From an uncultured Ignavibacteria bacterium (GTDB taxonomy: Bacteria; Bacteroidota; Ignavibacteria; Tepidaquicellales; OLB5), in NCBI GenBank assembly GCA_937873695.1, contig CALMYL010000018.1, positions 1 to 64,000 on the forward strand: a stretch of DNA of 64,000 nucleotides, written 5' to 3'. Shown here piece by piece: positions 1,944 to 10,924 of this stretch; the stretch's first letter is position 1, and each line of letters starts with the position of its first letter. The position numbers were made by a program, and so were the translations under genes. The notes below the pieces were generated by a model. It saw nothing but the letters and a program-made list of their open reading frames with translations. It was not told the origin of the DNA and did not search any database.

Positions 1944-3830
1944 CTATTTCAGTAAAACCATTTTTTTGATATCTGAAAAGCTGCCGGCGGCATTACCGGT
2001 TTGGGCAGCTTCTAACCTGCAAAAATATACTCCGCTTGCAAGAGATGACGCATCAAAATTTACTTCATAATTGCCTGAGCTGTATTCCGAATCAGCAAGC
2101 ACTGCAACTTCCCTTCCCTGAATATCGTAAACTTTCAGGTTAATGTGTGTTTTTAAAGGTACACTGAAAGTTATTTTTGTTGCAGGGTTAAATGGATTCG
2201 GGTAATTCTGCATCAAACGGAACTCAGATGGCACTTCGTTGTTCTGGTGGATCAAACCTATAGGCACACCTGTACATCCCGCAGATGATATCATGTTCTT
2301 CGGTCCCTCTTCAGAATATATCATCAAACAACTATCACCTGTTTGATACCTGAATACAGGCTTAGGAGCAATTTCCTGTGATCCGGAATAATAATTCATC
2401 CTGTAAACATGGTTCATTATACCTGCGGAGTTCATAGAAATATAATGTATACTGTCTTCAGCTGCATCTGTAAAAAACGATATGTAATGAGTGCTTCCGT
2501 TGCGCACACCGATAATTTCAGGGGAATAGTTAGTATTTAAAGTACTGCCTAATAACGGAGAATCGCTGAATCCGCTTTCAAAGTTGCCGAAGTTTGACGA
2601 TGAGAACCATTTTACATTCCATAAACCATCATTGAATTCACGGAAAGTACAAACTATACTCCCGTTATTGTTACCGTTTGAAGAAAGCTTCGCATGGGTT
2701 TTTACACTGTTCGGATTACTTCCACCGATATTACCTCCCGCACCAATTGAGCTTACAGGCGGGTTGCCCAGAATATCACTTTTGGCAAAGTACAGTTTTG
2801 TGCTGTCAGCCACACCGCAGAAGGACACTTCAACTGAATCTTCCCCGCCGCTGATGAAATATGCTATATCAGTATAAGATCTTCTTGGGACCGAACCAGC
2901 GTTATCGAACCAGTAAAAATTTGGTGACATGAATGAAAACACCGGGTTAACCAGGGAATACGGGCTAAGTATCCGTGCGAACTTCTGCGAATACACCCTG
3001 CTTCCGCTTGCATCAACTGAATCAAACGAACAGGCAATATATACATAGGGTGTTGCTGCATACTGCGCATTATCGGATGTCAGCCTGACATTGTAGTAAT
3101 TCTTTAATGAATCGGCCTCCGACCACTCCAGAATGTTAAAGAACGTACCATTCAGACTTGGCACCTGCAGTATAAATGCGCCAACGGCTTTCCTGCCTGA
3201 TACCTGTTTGAACCCAAAAGACACCCAAAGATATTTCTGACCGGTATTATTTTCAACCAGTTCCATATCAAGGTCATCGGGAGTTATAAAATCACCTGGC
3301 CTAATATTACCCGATACGTACATATTCCAGCTCACACCGTTGTTAAGTGAGTAGTAGACCTTCAATGTATCCGGGCTGAGGCTATCAGCGGAGTATACCA
3401 CAATTGACCATAACTTTCCGGCGGTAGAACCGCGCTGCTCAATTGCGGCGGCTATCCCTTTAATTTTTCCGTTCCCGTCTGTATATATTCTGGTATTCTG
3501 AATGTCATCTGTAAATCCCCCCATTGAAGGCTGATGAAAATTTATGAGCGTACCATAATTATTTCCATCCTGCAAACTCCCCGTTTCAGTATTACCTGTA
3601 CCGGTAATTCTTTCGAGCTGCCTGTTCAGTTCAATTATTTTACTCAGGTTTTCAATCTTATCCTGCTTTTTCAGGCGCTTCAATTCCTGTTCTATCTCAA
3701 CCTGCTTCTCTGATTTCCTGAATGTGACCTGTGTTTCAGAATTTCCCATTGTATTCTGGGCGAAAGGGACTGTTGCAGTAATGCAAAATAAATAGATCAC
3801 AGAAAAATGTACGTAAAATTTGAATACCAT
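1944..3830 (-). CDS. Large secreted protein with T9SS sorting domain
   Basis: The 628-aa exported protein has a signal peptide (about 1-25, ending in FAQ) and a charged coiled-coil-like stretch at about 35-70. A long beta-rich body follows, resembling a beta-propeller (phrases such as KLYFAKSDILG and ISFFTDAAEDSIHYIS). From about residue 540 it has a type A T9SS C-terminal domain (NYPNPFNP, LKVYDIQGREV, ASGVYFCRL, KKMVLLK). It is expected to be secreted by T9SS and anchored or released at the cell surface. No catalytic motif was recognised. Confidence 0.8.
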   Translation of the reverse strand: MVFKFYVHFSVIYLFCITATVPFAQNTMGNSETQVTFRKSEKQVEIEQELKRLKKQDKIENLSKIIELNRQLERITGTGNTETGSLQDGNNYGTLINFHQPSMGGFTDDIQNTRIYTDGNGKIKGIAAAIEQRGSTAGKLWSIVVYSADSLSPDTLKVYYSLNNGVSWNMYVSGNIRPGDFITPDDLDMELVENNTGQKYLWVSFGFKQVSGRKAVGAFILQVPSLNGTFFNILEWSEADSLKNYYNVRLTSDNAQYAATPYVYIACSFDSVDASGSRVYSQKFARILSPYSLVNPVFSFMSPNFYWFDNAGSVPRRSYTDIAYFISGGEDSVEVSFCGVADSTKLYFAKSDILGNPPVSSIGAGGNIGGSNPNSVKTHAKLSSNGNNNGSIVCTFREFNDGLWNVKWFSSSNFGNFESGFSDSPLLGSTLNTNYSPEIIGVRNGSTHYISFFTDAAEDSIHYISMNSAGIMNHVYRMNYYSGSQEIAPKPVFRYQTGDSCLMIYSEEGPKNMISSAGCTGVPIGLIHQNNEVPSEFRLMQNYPNPFNPATKITFSVPLKTHINLKVYDIQGREVAVLADSEYSSGNYEVNFDASSLASGVYFCRLEAAQTGNAAGSFSDIKKMVLLK

Positions 3831-4638: not shown

Positions 4639-5166
4639 TTATCTTTTCTGCCGGTATTTCTTAAAGATCTTCATCAAAGCATCATATTTCTGTTTATCAG
4701 TATTACCGGTAAAGGAGTATTCGTCAAATGCCGGCGAAAGAGCGCCGATTATACCACCTATGAGCGCAAATGGCACTGCGGTTAACGCACCTAGCGCAAA
4801 CCCCTGGTCAACATGGAAAGTTGGACTGTTATGAATATCCAGGAAGCCGCCAGCGATGAAGCCAAGAAAAAAGCCAACCGATCCTGCTATTCCTGCTATT
4901 TTCCATAACTGAGTACCGTTTCTCATTGATACAGATTCGATATCCTTAATATCTACTTTGTAAGTATATCTATTTGTATCGGGCAAAAGATGCGAGGGGG
5001 TTAATGTGAATATATTAAGACTGTTATCAAACATATAAGTTACCACTTTACCGCTTTCAAACTGTTTAATTTTCATTTCAGGCAATCCGAAAGTGCGGGA
5101 TGAATCGTTTTGAGCAAATATAGATGAAGCCAGTAATAAACCAAGAAGCAAGGTCAGTGTTTTCAT
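4639..5166 (-). CDS. Signal-peptide/glycine-zipper membrane protein, paralog 1 of 3
   Basis: The 175-aa protein has a signal peptide ending IFAQ, then a short soluble domain (FGLPEMKIKQFESGKVVTY..FDN) and the phrase IESVSMRNG. A pair of Gly/Ala-rich hydrophobic helices follows (about 90-150, with GGIIGALSPAFDEYS). It ends in a basic tail (ALMKIFKKYRQKR). It is clearly homologous to the proteins at 7865-8410 and 9340-9879. Location is probably periplasm or envelope. I do not recognise the family and propose no function. A DUF3592 gene lies 18 bp upstream, so co-transcription is likely. Confidence 0.75.
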   Translation of the reverse strand: MKTLTLLLGLLLASSIFAQNDSSRTFGLPEMKIKQFESGKVVTYMFDNSLNIFTLTPSHLLPDTNRYTYKVDIKDIESVSMRNGTQLWKIAGIAGSVGFFLGFIAGGFLDIHNSPTFHVDQGFALGALTAVPFALIGGIIGALSPAFDEYSFTGNTDKQKYDALMKIFKKYRQKR

Positions 5167-5184
5167 TTTACACAGTAAGTTAGT

Positions 5185-5628
5185 TTATAACAAAGGAACA
5201 AAAAGCATGATTATTACAAAAAACAACAGGATCCCTGAGAATAAAATTCCCAAACCTCCAAACAGCCATGCAATGAAAAAGAATTTCCACTTCTTCCCCC
5301 CGCGCCTTGCTTTTTGCGGGCGGGCAGGATCATATAAGACAATTACTTCATCGCCAATTTTATAATCAGGTCTGTTGCTGGACCAGTTTTCAGTGAATTC
5401 ATATTCTTTGCCCATTCTGTCTGTAAACCTGATTTGCGGGGAATACATACTACCGCTTCCGTCATCACCGAAGCCTTTGAAAACCGATTGCACAACAGTA
5501 CCGCGTGTTTCTATGGCAGATGCCAGGAATTTTTTCACCCGTACATATGAAATGATCCCTATTGTTAGCATGATAAATGATATCAGCCCGTTGACACCAA
5601 ATACCAGTATTAGTTCTGTCTGCGTCAT
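5185..5628 (-). CDS. DUF3592 domain membrane protein
   Basis: The 147-aa protein has an N-terminal transmembrane helix (8-28), a soluble beta domain (ETRGTVVQSVF..SPQIRFTDRMGKEYEF..IGDEVIVLYDPARPQKAR) and one or two C-terminal helices (about 112-145). This is the DUF3592 organisation; the function of the family is unknown. The start overlaps the stop of the DUF1801 gene by four bases (ATGA), and paralog 1 follows, making a three-gene minus-strand unit. Confidence 0.8.
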   Translation of the reverse strand: MTQTELILVFGVNGLISFIMLTIGIISYVRVKKFLASAIETRGTVVQSVFKGFGDDGSGSMYSPQIRFTDRMGKEYEFTENWSSNRPDYKIGDEVIVLYDPARPQKARRGGKKWKFFFIAWLFGGLGILFSGILLFFVIIMLFVPLL

Positions 5629-6059
5629 GCCCTGTGCGGGAATTGTTTATAACTTTTGATGTATTTTACTGATACTTTTATCAGTTCTTCAAGGATTTTT
5701 ATATCAATATCAGAAAGTCTTTTTACATACAGGCAAGCCTTTCCCATTTTATATTTACCAAGTTTCTTCATAAGTTCAGGCGACTTATCAGGGCCTGCAA
5801 GCAAATAGATAGAAAATGCAGCTTTGCGCGGCGAAAAGCCGGTTATGCACATTTCACCTCCGTGACCGCTTTCATATTTGTATTCATACTTCCCGAATCC
5901 GATAATTGAAGGACCCCACATTTTGGGTTCTTCCTTTGTTATCTTCTTCATCATATCAACAAGCACATAGCTATCCTGACGCTTTTGTTCATCTTCAACT
6001 GCATCAATAAACTTCTTCACACTTACTTTTGTAGCTTTTGTTTTTATTTCTGCCATCAT
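5625..6059 (-). CDS. DUF1801 domain protein
   Basis: The 144-aa soluble protein is recognised from the DUF1801 core: EEPKMWGPSIIGFGKYEYKY, GFSPRKAAFSIYL and KMGKACLYVKRLSDID. The family (YdhG-like) has a small alpha/beta fold. Its biochemical role is not established. It is first in the unit DUF1801-DUF3592-paralog 1 and is translationally coupled to DUF3592. Confidence 0.85.
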   Translation of the reverse strand: MMAEIKTKATKVSVKKFIDAVEDEQKRQDSYVLVDMMKKITKEEPKMWGPSIIGFGKYEYKYESGHGGEMCITGFSPRKAAFSIYLLAGPDKSPELMKKLGKYKMGKACLYVKRLSDIDIKILEELIKVSVKYIKSYKQFPHRA

Positions 6060-6248
6060 TAGAGGTGAAATGCTGAATTTGTGAAATAGTGAGAATGTTG
6101 TTTTTCATCAACTGCATTTTTGGAAATTCTGCCGATTGATTCCTAAAATAAGATAAATTCTGCAAACTAAAAATAACAAATTAGTTTTTTATGCGACCAT
6201 TTAGCTCACAATAGCGTCATTTTGATAAAACCAATAATACAATCTGAC

Positions 6249-7571
6249 ATGAATCTAAATTTGTTAATAAAAATCCTCCTTTTTGCTGTTTTTATGAATA
6301 ACATCTTTGCTGATGAATATGCTGATAAACTTGACAAGATAGTAAGTGGGTATAATGATCTTGGGTTGTTTTCAGGGAATGTGCTTGTGGCAAAGGACGG
6401 GAATATTATTTACGAAAAACAATTCGGCTATGCTGACTGGGAGAAGAAAACCCCTGTAACACCGGAAACATTGTTCCGTATCGGCTCGCTGAACAAGATG
6501 TTCACACATACTATGATCAAACAGCTTGAAAAAGAAAATAAGCTCGGTCTCGATGATCCATTAAGTAAGTATTTAGACCTGTACCCGAAGGAAACCGGCG
6601 ATAAGATCACAATAAGAATGCTGATTGAAATGAAAGCGGGACTTGGTGATTATTTAATGAACCCGGAATTCAATCAGAACAGGGATAAATTCAAAACTGT
6701 GAACGATTTCCTTGAAATAATTAAAAGTGAACCGCTGCTATTTGAACCAGGTACAGCACAGGAGTATTCAAATTCAGGTTACGTTGTGCTTGGAGGCATT
6801 ATAGAAAAAGTAACAGGCAAAAGTTATGTTGATAACCTTAAAGAACGACTGATAAATCCTTTAGGTATGAACAATACCCACTATCTGCTGATCGGCGAAA
6901 CTGTTCCTAATATGGCAAGCGGCACAAGAATTACTTTTTCAGGTAATAAAGTAAATTCACCGTTTTTGGAGCAGCCATCACCCGCAGGCGGGATGTTTTC
7001 AAATGCTCGCGACCTGCTGAAGCTTGACCAATATTTAAAGCAAACTGGTTTGCTTGGGCAAGCTATCCGTGCCGGCGGCACACAAGTATGGAATAGTGTA
7101 CTTGCGCAAATGAAAGATGGATACACAGTGATAATTAATTCCAATTTCGGGCAGGTTGCCGATGAGATTATCATGAGGTTCGAGGACGCTGTGAACGGAA
7201 AAGATTATCCAAAACCCGATGTTACCATGGAAATGAAAATGTATGCTATTTTGACAAATGACGGTATTGAAAAGCTTGAGAGTTCACTGAAACAGATCCT
7301 TGAAGCTAATGGTATGCTGTATAACGACCGTCATCTCAACTTCTTTGGTTATGAGTTAATGAAAGATAAACTGCTTGATAAAGCAATTGAAGTGTTTGAA
7401 CTGAATGCTAAATTATTTCCAGGTGTGCCAAATGTATGGGATTCACTTGCCGAAGCATATATGAACAAAGGCGAAAATAAACTGGCTATTGAGAATTACA
7501 AAAAAGTACTGGAGCTTGACACCGAAAATCAGAATGCCCGGAAGATGCTTGAGAAGCTGGAAAGCAAGTAA
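6249..7571 (+). CDS. Exported serine hydrolase (class C beta-lactamase-like) with C-terminal TPR
   Basis: I take the ATG at 6249 because it gives a clean signal peptide (MNLNLLIKILLFAVF...FA); a TTG 27 bp upstream is the alternative. The mature protein has the beta-lactamase/transpeptidase fold with SLNK (SxxK nucleophile, in RIGSLNKMF) and YSN (in EYSNSGYVVLG). The third motif is degenerate: where the family has HSGG or KTG this protein has RAGGTQVWNS. The linker before it is much shorter than usual, as if some 50 residues were deleted. The last 100 residues are TPR-like (NVWDSLAEAYMNKGENKLAI). It may be a peptidase/esterase relative or an inactive binding protein. Confidence 0.8.
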   Translation: MNLNLLIKILLFAVFMNNIFADEYADKLDKIVSGYNDLGLFSGNVLVAKDGNIIYEKQFGYADWEKKTPVTPETLFRIGSLNKMFTHTMIKQLEKENKLGLDDPLSKYLDLYPKETGDKITIRMLIEMKAGLGDYLMNPEFNQNRDKFKTVNDFLEIIKSEPLLFEPGTAQEYSNSGYVVLGGIIEKVTGKSYVDNLKERLINPLGMNNTHYLLIGETVPNMASGTRITFSGNKVNSPFLEQPSPAGGMFSNARDLLKLDQYLKQTGLLGQAIRAGGTQVWNSVLAQMKDGYTVIINSNFGQVADEIIMRFEDAVNGKDYPKPDVTMEMKMYAILTNDGIEKLESSLKQILEANGMLYNDRHLNFFGYELMKDKLLDKAIEVFELNAKLFPGVPNVWDSLAEAYMNKGENKLAIENYKKVLELDTENQNARKMLEKLESK

Positions 7572-7597
7572 AAAGTAATCCGTCAGAGCCGGATTTC

Positions 7598-7747
7598 AAT
7601 CAAGCTGCGCTTGATTTCAAAAAAGTGAAAAGGCAAAAAAAAAGTAAATTGTACATTGGCATATATCAGTTTTTCCAATGCTCCCCTCCTTTTTTAAGGA
7701 GGGGAAGCATTCCCTGTTTACCCATTAGGGGCTGAAAGCGGGAATGC
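7598..7747. repeat. Cluster of three hairpin repeats
   Basis: This region between the serine hydrolase and paralog 2 holds three inverted repeats. AATCAAGC/GCTTGATT is at 7598-7616. The second is CTCCCCTCCTT..AAGGAGGGG at 7681-7704. The third is GCATTCCC/GGGAATGC at 7707-7747. The first could terminate the serine hydrolase transcript. The C/G-rich one resembles dispersed repeats elsewhere in the window (23011-23035). Confidence 0.6.
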
Positions 7748-7864
7748 GGGGTGGTCAAATGTATTTCACTCAATCACATATCAACTCATGATTGGCTCCG
7801 CTCTCTAGAGTGGAGAAAAGAGTCACCCTCAAATAAATGGGATCTTTATCCCAAAAAGAAATTA

Positions 7865-8410
7865 TTATTTACCTGATTTATCGTACTTTTTCAGAATTCT
7901 CTTAAACTGCTCTCTTATAATATAAGGATCTTTGGAGAATTCATCATAATGGTCATAGTTAGGCACAAATGAGCCGATTATGAATCCCAAAAGTCCGCCT
8001 GATAATCCGCCTGTTAAAGTAAAGTAAGCAATGGTTTTCGCATTATCTTCAAACTGAATAGAATTAACAAATATCAATCCTGTTAACAAGCCTATAACAC
8101 TTCCTGCAATTCCATTAAACGTTGCAGCTTTTAATGACTGATTCCCATTCTGTATCACAAGGTATTTGATATACATAACCTGATAACTGGATTCATATCC
8201 ATCACGATCAGCAGAGAGAACACTACCTCTTAGCGATACCTGGTTGGTATCTTTTTTGAAATATGTTGTCTGAATACCGGAAAGACTTTCGTCGGTTATC
8301 GCCATGGGCGGAAGCCTGAATTTATAAATTGAGTCACGGTGATCAGCCTGATATTCCGTCTGCGGGTACAGGATGGATGAAGTAAAGAGAAACAATAGAA
8401 AGAATTTCAT
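7865..8410 (-). CDS. Signal-peptide/glycine-zipper membrane protein, paralog 2 of 3
   Basis: The 181-aa protein starts at the ATG encoding MKFFLLFLFTSSILYPQ; an upstream GTG would put the start inside a palindrome and before the signal peptide. It shares the family pattern: YKFRLPPMAI near the mature N-terminus, two Gly-rich helices (about 105-160, SGGLLGFIIGSFVPNYDHYDEFSKD) and the end FKRILKKYDKSGK. The central region diverges from the other two copies. It is transcribed on its own between hairpin-rich intergenic regions. Function unknown. Confidence 0.75.
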   Translation of the reverse strand: MKFFLLFLFTSSILYPQTEYQADHRDSIYKFRLPPMAITDESLSGIQTTYFKKDTNQVSLRGSVLSADRDGYESSYQVMYIKYLVIQNGNQSLKAATFNGIAGSVIGLLTGLIFVNSIQFEDNAKTIAYFTLTGGLSGGLLGFIIGSFVPNYDHYDEFSKDPYIIREQFKRILKKYDKSGK

Positions 8411-8425
8411 TTTATATTTATTTTT

Positions 8426-8491
8426 GACCACGTAGTGGTCACACCCTTATAGAAAATTTCACAGATAATAACACGACGACATAGGTGTCGC
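8426..8491. repeat. Two short palindromes upstream of paralog 2
   Basis: GACCACGTAGTGGTC at 8426-8440 is a perfect odd palindrome 16 bp upstream of the paralog 2 ATG. CGACA-TAGG-TGTCG at 8478-8491 follows. They resemble the CCACG..CGTGG hairpins at 9276 and 10901 and are probably one repeat family. An operator role for the first cannot be excluded. Confidence 0.55.
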
Positions 8492-8545
8492 ACATGAACC
8501 AACCTATATTAGCGTTGTATTTTTGATTGTTTTTCCGGCCAATTC

Positions 8546-9076
8546 TCACTTCTTCAAACCAGTTTCAATCTTTTCAAGAGTTGCGGCAATTCTCTTCAGC
8601 AGCTCGGTTTGCTCGTTACCCGCTGAATTGCCAGAAGCCATTCCCCGCTTTACCAGCTCACGCTGCTCGAGTACCGCAGCACGGAATACATGCGCATCAA
8701 CAACGCCAACAAGCTTCATGTGGTTGCCTGAGTGCTCAGCCTGTCCCGCTGTTTCAACACGCAGCATCGCAAGATTCAAATGACGCAGCACGGGTCCTTC
8801 GTAGAAAGTTAAGTCCTGGATGTTTTCCAGCGGAATGGTTTTATCAATAGTAAATAATATCCCCATCCTGAGCCGCAGGTGTTTTTCCGTCAGTACGCAA
8901 TACAGTTTATCGTAATAATGACGGCTGTACCACTGCCCCACACCGCATAGCCATATTATGGCTAACGGGATCCCCACAATTGTTACAAGCAGAATGCCGC
9001 ATATATACAGCAGTATATATGTCTTAACTATCGGGTTGAATTCTGCCTTAATTAATATTGGTTCATTTTCTGTCAT
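8546..9076 (-). CDS. bPH2 (DUF304, YdbS-like) PH-domain membrane protein
   Basis: The ATG at 9076 (MTENEPILIKAEFNP) gives a 176-aa protein. An upstream in-frame start would run through a palindromic repeat and is unlikely. Two hydrophobic helices (about 18-48) are followed by a bacterial PH domain with the typical YDKLYCVLTEKHLRLRMG..TIPLENIQDLTFYEGPVLRHLNLAMLRVET pattern. The C-terminus is helical (LLKRIAATLEKIETGLKK). It is an inner-membrane protein of unknown specific role. Related YdbS/YdbT proteins occur as pairs, but no partner is seen here. Confidence 0.82.
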   Translation of the reverse strand: MTENEPILIKAEFNPIVKTYILLYICGILLVTIVGIPLAIIWLCGVGQWYSRHYYDKLYCVLTEKHLRLRMGILFTIDKTIPLENIQDLTFYEGPVLRHLNLAMLRVETAGQAEHSGNHMKLVGVVDAHVFRAAVLEQRELVKRGMASGNSAGNEQTELLKRIAATLEKIETGLKK

Positions 9077-9083
9077 AATAATT

Positions 9084-9179
9084 AGTCTTTCCCGCGCAAG
9101 CGGGAATCTCCATCTTGAATTACAGATTAAAATCATAATTGTCACGACCTTCTTGGCTGATCTCTCAGTTAGGTCGTGG
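9084..9179. repeat. Hairpin repeats upstream of the PH-domain gene
   Basis: CCCGC-GCAA-GCGGG near 9090-9103 and the arms CACGACCT (9143-9150) / AGGTCGTG (9171-9178) flank the upstream region. The second belongs to the same sequence family as the CCACG..CGTGG hairpins. Confidence 0.6.
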
Positions 9180-9243
9180 TTTGAAAATATAACAAGTTAG
9201 GGCTTTATCCCCTAATAAATATTTCCTTGTAAAAATGAATTAG

Positions 9244-9299
9244 CGGCTAAAGCCGGGTTTTCTTCTAACTATTATCCACGACCTAAAGGTCGTGGCAAC
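9244..9299. repeat. Composite double-hairpin repeat, copy 1
   Basis: CGGCTAAAGCCG (9244-9255), a 20-bp pyrimidine-rich spacer, then CCACGACCTAAAGGTCGTGG (9276-9295) and CAAC. The same order and spacing recurs at 10867-10924. Confidence 0.75.
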
Positions 9300-9339
9300 A
9301 AAGTTCTGTTATCGAAAAATATATAAAATGACGCAACTA

Positions 9340-9879
9340 TTATTCGTTTCTTTTTTTATTCAGATCATGTTCATAAAGTATTTTCCGTAACTGTTTTTTC
9401 CGGACTTCAATGTCATTTGAAAAATCACTGTATCCATCGTATCTGGGCTTAAATGAACCTAAGAATCCCCCAATTATTGCCCCGCCAAGGAATCCGGCTG
9501 CTGCAAATCCCGGAATTACCAAAGCTATCTCAGCAAACTTTGGCCTGAAAACAACAGCATTCATGACTCCAAAAACGAATCCTATTCCGGCACCGATAAA
9601 TCCGCCATATTTAGCCCCACCAAAAGTTGAAAAACCGTTCCTTATCGAAAAGGAATTGATATCATCAAGCCTAACTGTATATTTATATTTATCGGGGTTT
9701 GCTTTCAATAGGCTATCGCTTAAGAGGAAAAGATTATCATCATTATCAAATCCGTATGTGACGAGTTTACCATTTTCATACTGCCTGATATTTATTTCAG
9801 GTATGTTAAATCTATAAACAGAATCACTTTGAGCAAAAAGGATGGATGAAGTTAAGAGTAATGCTATTAACAGTTTCAT
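9340..9879 (-). CDS. Signal-peptide/glycine-zipper membrane protein, paralog 3 of 3
   Basis: The 179-aa protein is closest to paralog 1: signal peptide ending LFAQ, YRFNIPEINIRQYENGKLVTYGFDN, INSFSIRNG, Gly-rich helices (about 88-150, GGAIIGGFLGSFKPRYDGYSDFSND) and a basic end (LRKILYEHDLNKKRNE). It is preceded by a 90-aa unknown gene 5 bp upstream, so the two form a unit. Function unknown. Conservation of the region after the second helix (xYDxYSxFSxD) in all three copies suggests a functional motif. Confidence 0.75.
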   Translation of the reverse strand: MKLLIALLLTSSILFAQSDSVYRFNIPEINIRQYENGKLVTYGFDNDDNLFLLSDSLLKANPDKYKYTVRLDDINSFSIRNGFSTFGGAKYGGFIGAGIGFVFGVMNAVVFRPKFAEIALVIPGFAAAGFLGGAIIGGFLGSFKPRYDGYSDFSNDIEVRKKQLRKILYEHDLNKKRNE

Positions 9880-9884
9880 ATAGT

Positions 9885-10157
9885 TCAGTTGTAATTTTCA
9901 AGGTAGTTTAAGTACATCGGGTAGTTTTCAGCTACCCAATCTTTAAGCTGTAATTCATCATTTATAACAACTTTGTTATTGGTTTCGGTTTCTTCGATTG
10001 TCAATACATGTTTCCTGCTGCAGGCTAACTGGTAAATTACAAAAAACTGCCGAGCACCGGAATCATGGAACAATCTTTTATCATTGTAATAATCCACCGG
10101 GTAAATTGCATCAAAGTATTTACCGTTAAACAGTATGTTGTATTTTGGTGTTAGCAA
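9885..10157 (-). CDS. Hypothetical protein (90 aa)
   Basis: The small soluble protein has an aromatic-rich sequence (NGKYFDAIYPVDYYNDKRLFHD) and no recognised domain. No in-frame ATG exists before an upstream TAA, so the start is probably the TTG at 10157. It lies 5 bp upstream of paralog 3 and is likely co-transcribed with it. I cannot assign a family. Confidence 0.5.
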   Translation of the reverse strand: MLTPKYNILFNGKYFDAIYPVDYYNDKRLFHDSGARQFFVIYQLACSRKHVLTIEETETNNKVVINDELQLKDWVAENYPMYLNYLENYN

Positions 10158-10240
10158 AATTATTAATTATCTTTTTTTGTATGCTTCAATTTAGTAACCA
10201 CAACCATGATTTCAAGTGGACTATATTTAACTTTGTATTG

Positions 10241-10326
10241 TCACCCTGAACTTGTTTCAGGGTCTATTTTCATACTCTCTCATTCTTGGGTATGCAGGCA
10301 GATGCTGAAACAAGTTCAGCATGACA
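10241..10326. repeat. Paired hairpin repeat (CTGAACTTGTTTCAG type)
   Basis: Two arms in inverted orientation, each itself a hairpin: CCCTGAACTTGTTTCAGGG (10244-10262) and TGCTGAAACAAGTTCAGCA (10303-10321), separated by about 40 bp. A single arm of the same family occurs at 34921-34946. Confidence 0.75.
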
Positions 10327-10866: not shown

Positions 10867-10924
10867 TGGGCTTAAGCCCATAATTTTCTTTCACTTTCTT
10901 CCACGGCCTGAAGGCCGTGGCAAC
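10867..10924. repeat. Composite double-hairpin repeat, copy 2
   Basis: TGGGCTTAAGCCCA (10867-10880), a 20-bp pyrimidine-rich spacer, then CCACGGCCTGAAGGCCGTGG (10901-10920) and CAAC. Organisation is the same as at 9244-9299. Confidence 0.75.

What the first reader, a model, noticed from the sequence alone, without database searches (positions are those of the whole stretch)
4639..9879. Three paralogs of an unrecognised signal-peptide/glycine-zipper family in 5 kb
All three share a signal peptide, a (F/Y)xLPxMxI or IPEINI segment, two Gly-rich helices, a conserved xYDxYSxFSxD stretch and a basic tail, but none is adjacent to another. Unrelated small genes and hairpins separate them. This looks like local expansion followed by shuffling. 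The conserved stretch after the helices may be the functional site.
Basis: seen in the sequence. Interest (0 to 1): 0.6.

Follow-up and report, generated by a model that had tools for sequence, protein, structure and literature searches.

The report
Unnamed exported glycine-zipper beta-barrel paralogs
Three related, unnamed small secreted membrane proteins sit close together in an Ignavibacteria genome; they belong to a much wider unnamed Bacteroidota family that joins a small Sm/Hfq-like beta-barrel to a glycine-rich membrane hairpin, and they probably form oligomers in the cell envelope.

Summary
Three minus-strand genes (4639-5166, 7865-8410, 9340-9879) are real paralogs: 34-41% identity, E 1e-21 to 1e-28 in the genome. 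The similarity lies mainly outside the Gly-rich helices, and the orthologs that could be compared are under purifying selection (dN/dS 0.06-0.14). No Pfam, NCBIfam, PHROG or PADLOC model covers them. Expansion is local, but gene order is conserved across the genus: copy birth and death, not shuffling. AlphaFold2 (pLDDT 92.7) shows signal peptide, beta domain, two-helix Gly-zipper hairpin, one more beta strand and a basic helix. The 'YDxYS' stretch is that extra strand, so probably structural rather than an active site. The genus-level family is one branch of a Bacteroidota-wide unnamed superfamily. A model of a distant member (pLDDT 90.4) puts an Sm/Hfq-like small barrel before the hairpin. 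Conserved cleavage before Gln, marginal hydrophobicity, a non-basic inter-helix loop, and relatives that are lipoprotein-like or fused to probable outer-membrane barrels favour an oligomeric outer-membrane protein that works like SlyB. This mechanism is inferred, not shown.

The parts
4639..5166 (-). P1, family member at the yjbQ site (175 aa); starts 19 bases after the DUF3592 gene, so probably its co-transcribed partner
7865..8410 (-). P2, family member at the bPH_2 site (181 aa from the ATG at 8410); fast-evolving branch found so far only here and in one sister species
9340..9879 (-). P3, family member at the acs site (179 aa); starts 6 bases after a 90-aa ORF
9832..9879 (-). P3 residues 1-16: type I signal peptide, predicted cut before Gln17
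   Evidence: Gln at this column in 38 of 40 members; Q-rule PMC5837995
9631..9816 (-). P3 residues 22-83: beta domain (seven strands)
   Evidence: AlphaFold2 model
9457..9627 (-). P3 residues 85-141: glycine-zipper two-helix hairpin
   Evidence: model; GxxxG positions and hydrophobicity
9430..9447 (-).
   Evidence: model; conservation
9370..9411 (-). P3 residues 157-170: basic C-terminal helix
   Evidence: model; charge
5185..5628 (-). DUF3592 membrane protein upstream of P1 (context, not part of the family)
8546..9145 (-). bPH_2 membrane protein between P3 and P2 (context, not part of the family)

Best explanation
The three genes are paralogs of a genus-level, birth-and-death family within an unnamed Bacteroidota-wide superfamily of exported membrane proteins. 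Each protein leaves the cytoplasm by a type I signal peptide (strongly indicated). It has a small beta domain, probably derived from an Sm/Hfq-like barrel, then a glycine-zipper two-helix hairpin, then one further strand (the YDxYS stretch, probably closing the beta domain) and a basic helix (two confident predicted models). Inferred: the barrel sits in the periplasm, the hairpin spans the outer membrane, and Gly-zipper packing makes a homo- or hetero-oligomeric, possibly ring-shaped, complex that scaffolds or guards outer-membrane proteins or lipids much as SlyB does; extra copies would supply variant subunits. My estimates by step: fold anatomy 0.9, export 0.95, Sm ancestry 0.65, outer rather than inner membrane 0.6, oligomer by zipper 0.65, SlyB-like guarding role 0.3.
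For: Paralogy and selection. Model of P3, pLDDT 92.7. Model of the distant member L079, pLDDT 90.4, same order of elements; its barrel matches Hfq (Foldseek probability 1.0, about 1 A over 44-47 residues) and YaeO/Rof Z 7.7; relative L069 has Pfam Hfq_1 at E 0.0028. Genus family tied to the phylum set by profiles (E 2e-22; tail alone 2e-6; beta alone 4e-4). Gln after the cut in 38 of 40, and the Q-rule with Ignavibacterium album at 77% (PMC5837995). Marginal hydrophobicity of the hairpin, between inner-membrane neighbours and SlyB. Non-basic inter-helix loop. Relatives with lipobox-like signals or C-terminal barrel-like regions. SlyB forms ring-shaped transmembrane complexes around outer-membrane proteins (PMC13067283).
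Against: Sm match is at fold level only (E 0.02-0.15, Z below 8) and comes from a distant member; P3's own beta domain gives weak, mixed matches. No oligomer prediction could be run. Hydrophobicity overlaps that of a helix in a neighbouring inner-membrane protein (fatty acid hydroxylase, +2.8). Only one fused C-terminal region reaches even a weak OMP match (E 0.005, below the curated cut-off). SlyB itself is only a weak profile match (E 0.44).
Confidence: 0.45

Rival explanations
1. Inner-membrane protein: the hairpin stays in the inner membrane and the periplasmic beta domain works with the inner-membrane proteins encoded beside it (bPH_2, DUF3592), for example as an envelope-stress or transporter accessory.
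For: P1 lies 19 bases downstream of DUF3592 and P2/P3 flank bPH_2; these neighbours are kept in most sister species. The hairpins are hydrophobic enough to be possible inner-membrane helices.
Against: The loop that would face the cytoplasm is not basic while the exported tail is (+4.9), against the positive-inside rule. The neighbour genes persist where the family copy is missing (G002 and G009 keep bPH_2 without an acs-site copy; G012 keeps two copies beside DUF1801 without DUF3592).
Confidence: 0.3
2. The beta domain of the genus family is a PH-like fold rather than an Sm-derived barrel, related in role to the neighbouring bPH_2 protein.
For: Foldseek and VIA lists for P3 contain many PH-superfold chains (RanBP1, FERM, Exo84, APPL1) with the C-terminal helix aligned; a bPH_2 gene is adjacent.
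Against: All scores are weak (E 0.47 or worse, Z 3-4). The simpler distant members give a clean Sm/Hfq match. Pfam finds no PH domain in the family.
Confidence: 0.12
3. Secreted contact-dependent glycine-zipper bacteriocins, as in Caulobacter (PMC5380434), with copy-number variation driven by competition.
For: Glycine zippers, small size and copy-number variation between sister species.
Against: Signal-peptidase I export with a folded beta domain, strong purifying selection, a stable site beside yjbQ, no PADLOC match and no obvious immunity gene beside them. The Caulobacter proteins were named from title and abstract only; no sequence comparison was made.
Confidence: 0.05

Closest known systems
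SlyB and glycine zipper 2TM proteins (Pfam Rick_17kDa_Anti, Gly-zipper_Omp, Gly-zipper_YMGG)
   Same: Exported envelope protein with a Gly-zipper two-helix hairpin of marginal hydrophobicity and a small extramembrane domain.
   Different: No lipobox in the window proteins; the beta domain comes before the hairpin; no match above a Pfam cut-off; SlyB only weakly matched (E 0.44).
Sm/Hfq fold (Hfq, YaeO/Rof)
   Same: The barrel of a canonical distant member superposes on Hfq at about 1 A over 44-47 residues.
   Different: Exported and membrane-bound, with a hairpin and a further strand after strand 5; sequence match below any cut-off. RNA binding is unlikely outside the cytoplasm (inference). 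FlgV is a published warning: a membrane protein once misnamed Hfq (PMC11607428).
MscS-type channels (from my own knowledge)
   Same: An Sm-like barrel coupled to Gly/Ala-rich packed transmembrane helices in a ring.
   Different: MscS is an inner-membrane channel with the barrel on the cytoplasmic side; no sequence relation was found or tested here.

Membership tests
Pfam glycine-zipper families (Gly-zipper_Omp, Gly-zipper_YMGG, Rick_17kDa_Anti) | Score at or above the curated Pfam cut-off | tested here: not met
   Best 10.4 bits against 25 for Gly-zipper_Omp; no distant relative that was scanned reaches it either
Pfam glycine-zipper families (Gly-zipper_Omp, Gly-zipper_YMGG, Rick_17kDa_Anti) | Two helices with repeated GxxxG | tested here: met
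   Strict GxxxG at several positions in both helices of all three; hairpin in the model
SlyB | Lipoprotein signal (lipobox Cys) | tested here: not met
   Window proteins have a signal peptide with Gln after the cut and no Cys
SlyB | Ring-shaped oligomer in the outer membrane | not testable with these tools
   Only single-chain prediction was available
Sm/Hfq fold | Five-strand small barrel with a short turn before strand 5 | tested here: inconclusive
   Clear at fold level for the distant member L079; P3's own domain gives weak, mixed matches
Sm/Hfq family as RNA chaperones | RNA binding and hexameric or heptameric ring | not testable with these tools
   Export by the signal peptide makes RNA binding unlikely (inference)
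Bacterial PH domain (bPH_2) | Score at or above the curated Pfam cut-off | tested here: not met
   No bPH match in P1-P3; the neighbour at 8546-9145 does match

The most novel reading that the evidence does not exclude
A Bacteroidota-wide, undescribed class of outer-membrane proteins in which an exported Sm/Hfq-fold barrel with a glycine-zipper hairpin placed before its last strand forms ring complexes that organise outer-membrane proteins, with lineage-specific paralogs as interchangeable subunits.
Probability: 0.25. Interest if true: 0.7.

Novelty: new variant of a known kind. Interest (0 to 1): 0.42.

Why it matters
The superfamily recurs across Bacteroidota yet has no library model, and it joins two oligomerising modules: an Sm-type barrel outside the cytoplasm and a glycine-zipper hairpin. 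If it works like SlyB, it would be a Bacteroidota counterpart of an outer-membrane guard system described in E. coli, and it would put an Sm-like fold in the envelope. The genus-level family is also a clean case of paralog birth and death at fixed chromosomal sites.

Tried and rejected
Single-sequence search of P3 against the PDB gave only chance-level matches. Profile searches of the PDB gave matches from Gly/Ala-rich composition (membrane helices, the palindromic region of prion protein), dismissed as compositional. Viral fold library: nothing below E 0.001, best an uncharacterised phage protein at E 0.003. Phage records by tblastn: none. PADLOC and PHROG: only weak chance matches. Rfam: no RNA family in the window. 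Shuffling of gene order was rejected by synteny. The phylum-level tally (57 of 296 genomes) is an upper figure, because some hits cover only the signal peptide. The idea of an active site in the YDxYS stretch was set aside on the model. The scan of named genome contigs found only two relatives, both Ignavibacteria MAGs.

Full report
OBSERVATION. Three minus-strand ORFs at 4639-5166 (P1), 7865-8410 (P2, the ATG being preferable to the GTG at 8431) and 9340-9879 (P3) encode 175, 181 and 179 residues. P3 retrieves P1 at 6.5e-28 and P2 at 5.6e-21 from its own 3.78-Mb genome. Region-preserving shuffles show that the beta region is far above chance (z 29, 12 and 8), while the Gly-rich hairpin alone is only modestly above composition (z 2-6). 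Against sister-species orthologs dN/dS is 0.06-0.14, like the neighbouring genes; P3 has no clear one-to-one ortholog and was not tested.

FAMILY. Neither Pfam nor NCBIfam reaches a cut-off; the best glycine-zipper match is Gly-zipper_Omp at 10.4 bits against 25. PHROG and PADLOC give only weak matches, and no phage record encodes a relative of P3. Strong matches are confined to the window's genus among the genomes searched, with weaker relatives elsewhere in the family and order. The two named hits are Ignavibacteria MAGs. An alignment of 40 members then reaches 81 of 197 genomes of the class and 57 of 296 sampled from the phylum at E 0.001 or better. Some of these hits cover only the signal peptide, so the numbers are upper figures. 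The window's own genome holds at least three more superfamily members, one on contig C16 and two side by side on C4.

GENE ORDER AND HISTORY. In sister genomes the same block recurs: acs, a 90-aa ORF, [family], bPH_2, [family], (a 400-aa TPR gene), beta-lactamase on the other strand, DUF1801, DUF3592, [family], YjbQ (neighbours named). Local differences exist (for example bPH_2 lies on the other side of the beta-lactamase gene in G012), but the order is largely kept. Where that stretch of contig is held, the yjbQ site has one or two copies; the acs/bPH_2 site has none to three. Two genomes in few contigs (G002, G009) have only the yjbQ-site copy. In the tree the acs-site copies group together (92/87), most yjbQ-site copies form a second group (97/98), and three copies from G008 and G012 fall outside it. 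P2 is a long branch shared with one sister species only. This is expansion by birth and death at fixed sites; tandem copies occur in G011, G012 and G008. Shuffling is not needed.

STRUCTURE. AlphaFold2 on P3 with 40 homologs gives pLDDT 92.7: N-terminal helix (signal peptide), strands 22-26, 29-35, 38-44, 49-53, 57-60, 68-70 and 74-83, helices 85-111 and 115-141, strand 145-150 and helix 157-170. A distant, simpler member (L079) models with pLDDT 90.4 as five strands, hairpin, strand, helix. Its barrel superposes on Hfq at about 1 A over 44-47 residues with Foldseek probability 1.0, and VIA gives YaeO/Rof Z 7.7 and Hfq Z 6-7. E-values are 0.02-0.15 and Z is below 8, so this is fold-level resemblance and not proof of descent. 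One relative adds a sub-threshold Pfam Hfq_1 hit. For P3 itself the matches of the beta domain are weak and mixed between Sm-like and PH-like. Profile comparison ties the genus family to the phylum set (E 2e-22 overall; tail alone 2e-6; beta alone 4e-4); these members had been collected with a related profile, so the E-values are somewhat flattering.

EXPORT AND LOCATION. The predicted cleavage site is followed by Gln in 38 of 40 members. That is the Bacteroidetes Q-rule for signal peptidase I substrates, and Ignavibacterium album is reported with a 77% Q-value (PMC5837995). The hairpins are marginally hydrophobic (biological-scale sums +1.3 to +2.3), between inner-membrane neighbours (down to -4.8) and E. 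coli SlyB (+4.4, +8.4), though they overlap helices of the neighbouring fatty acid hydroxylase (scale values from memory). With an exported N terminus the inter-helix loop would face the cytoplasm if the hairpin stayed in the inner membrane; it is not basic (net -0.25; -1.1 across the superfamily) while the tail is (+4.9). A few relatives carry lipobox-like signals. Five long relatives (L069, L071, L072, L078, L083) end in strands that look like those of outer-membrane barrels, one with a weak OMP_b-brl match. Together these favour the outer membrane without proving it.

MECHANISM. [quoted passage not shown] Shown: paralogy, selection, conserved synteny. Strongly indicated: export signal and the predicted folds. 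Inferred: location, oligomer, role. The inner-membrane alternative with bPH_2/DUF3592 partners is the main rival.

NOVELTY. The hairpin is of a known kind. The arrangement of an exported Sm-like barrel, hairpin, strand and helix, recurrent in Bacteroidota, has no library model, and I found no paper on it in the searched library. I rate it a new variant of a known kind.

Noticed in passing
window 7572-7864: Sister genomes carry a 400-aa signal-peptide, membrane-helix and TPR gene next to the beta-lactamase gene (L037 9137-10339, L039, L042, L043); it is missing from the window, where a non-coding stretch with a short inverted repeat lies instead.
   Followed up: partly
window 9885-10157: A 90-aa ORF with no Pfam match ends 6 bases before P3 and is kept in sister genomes even where the family copy is missing (G002).
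   Followed up: partly
window 10239-10326 and 9277-9294: A 37-base imperfect inverted repeat and a near-perfect 18-base palindrome (CACGACCTAAAGGTCGTG) lie in intergenic DNA; only one diverged copy of the latter is elsewhere in the window (10902-10919).
   Followed up: partly
L047 6920-8399 (own genome contig C4): Two adjacent longer superfamily members have two small barrel-like segments before the Gly-zipper hairpin.
   Followed up: no
L069, L071, L072, L078, L083: Relatives from other families of the class continue after the Gly-zipper hairpin into a C-terminal region that looks like an outer-membrane beta barrel ending in an aromatic or aliphatic residue.
   Followed up: partly
window 1944-3830: A 628-aa protein with a type IX secretion C-terminal sorting domain (Por_Secre_tail) lies next to the block and is conserved beside it in most sister species.
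   Followed up: no
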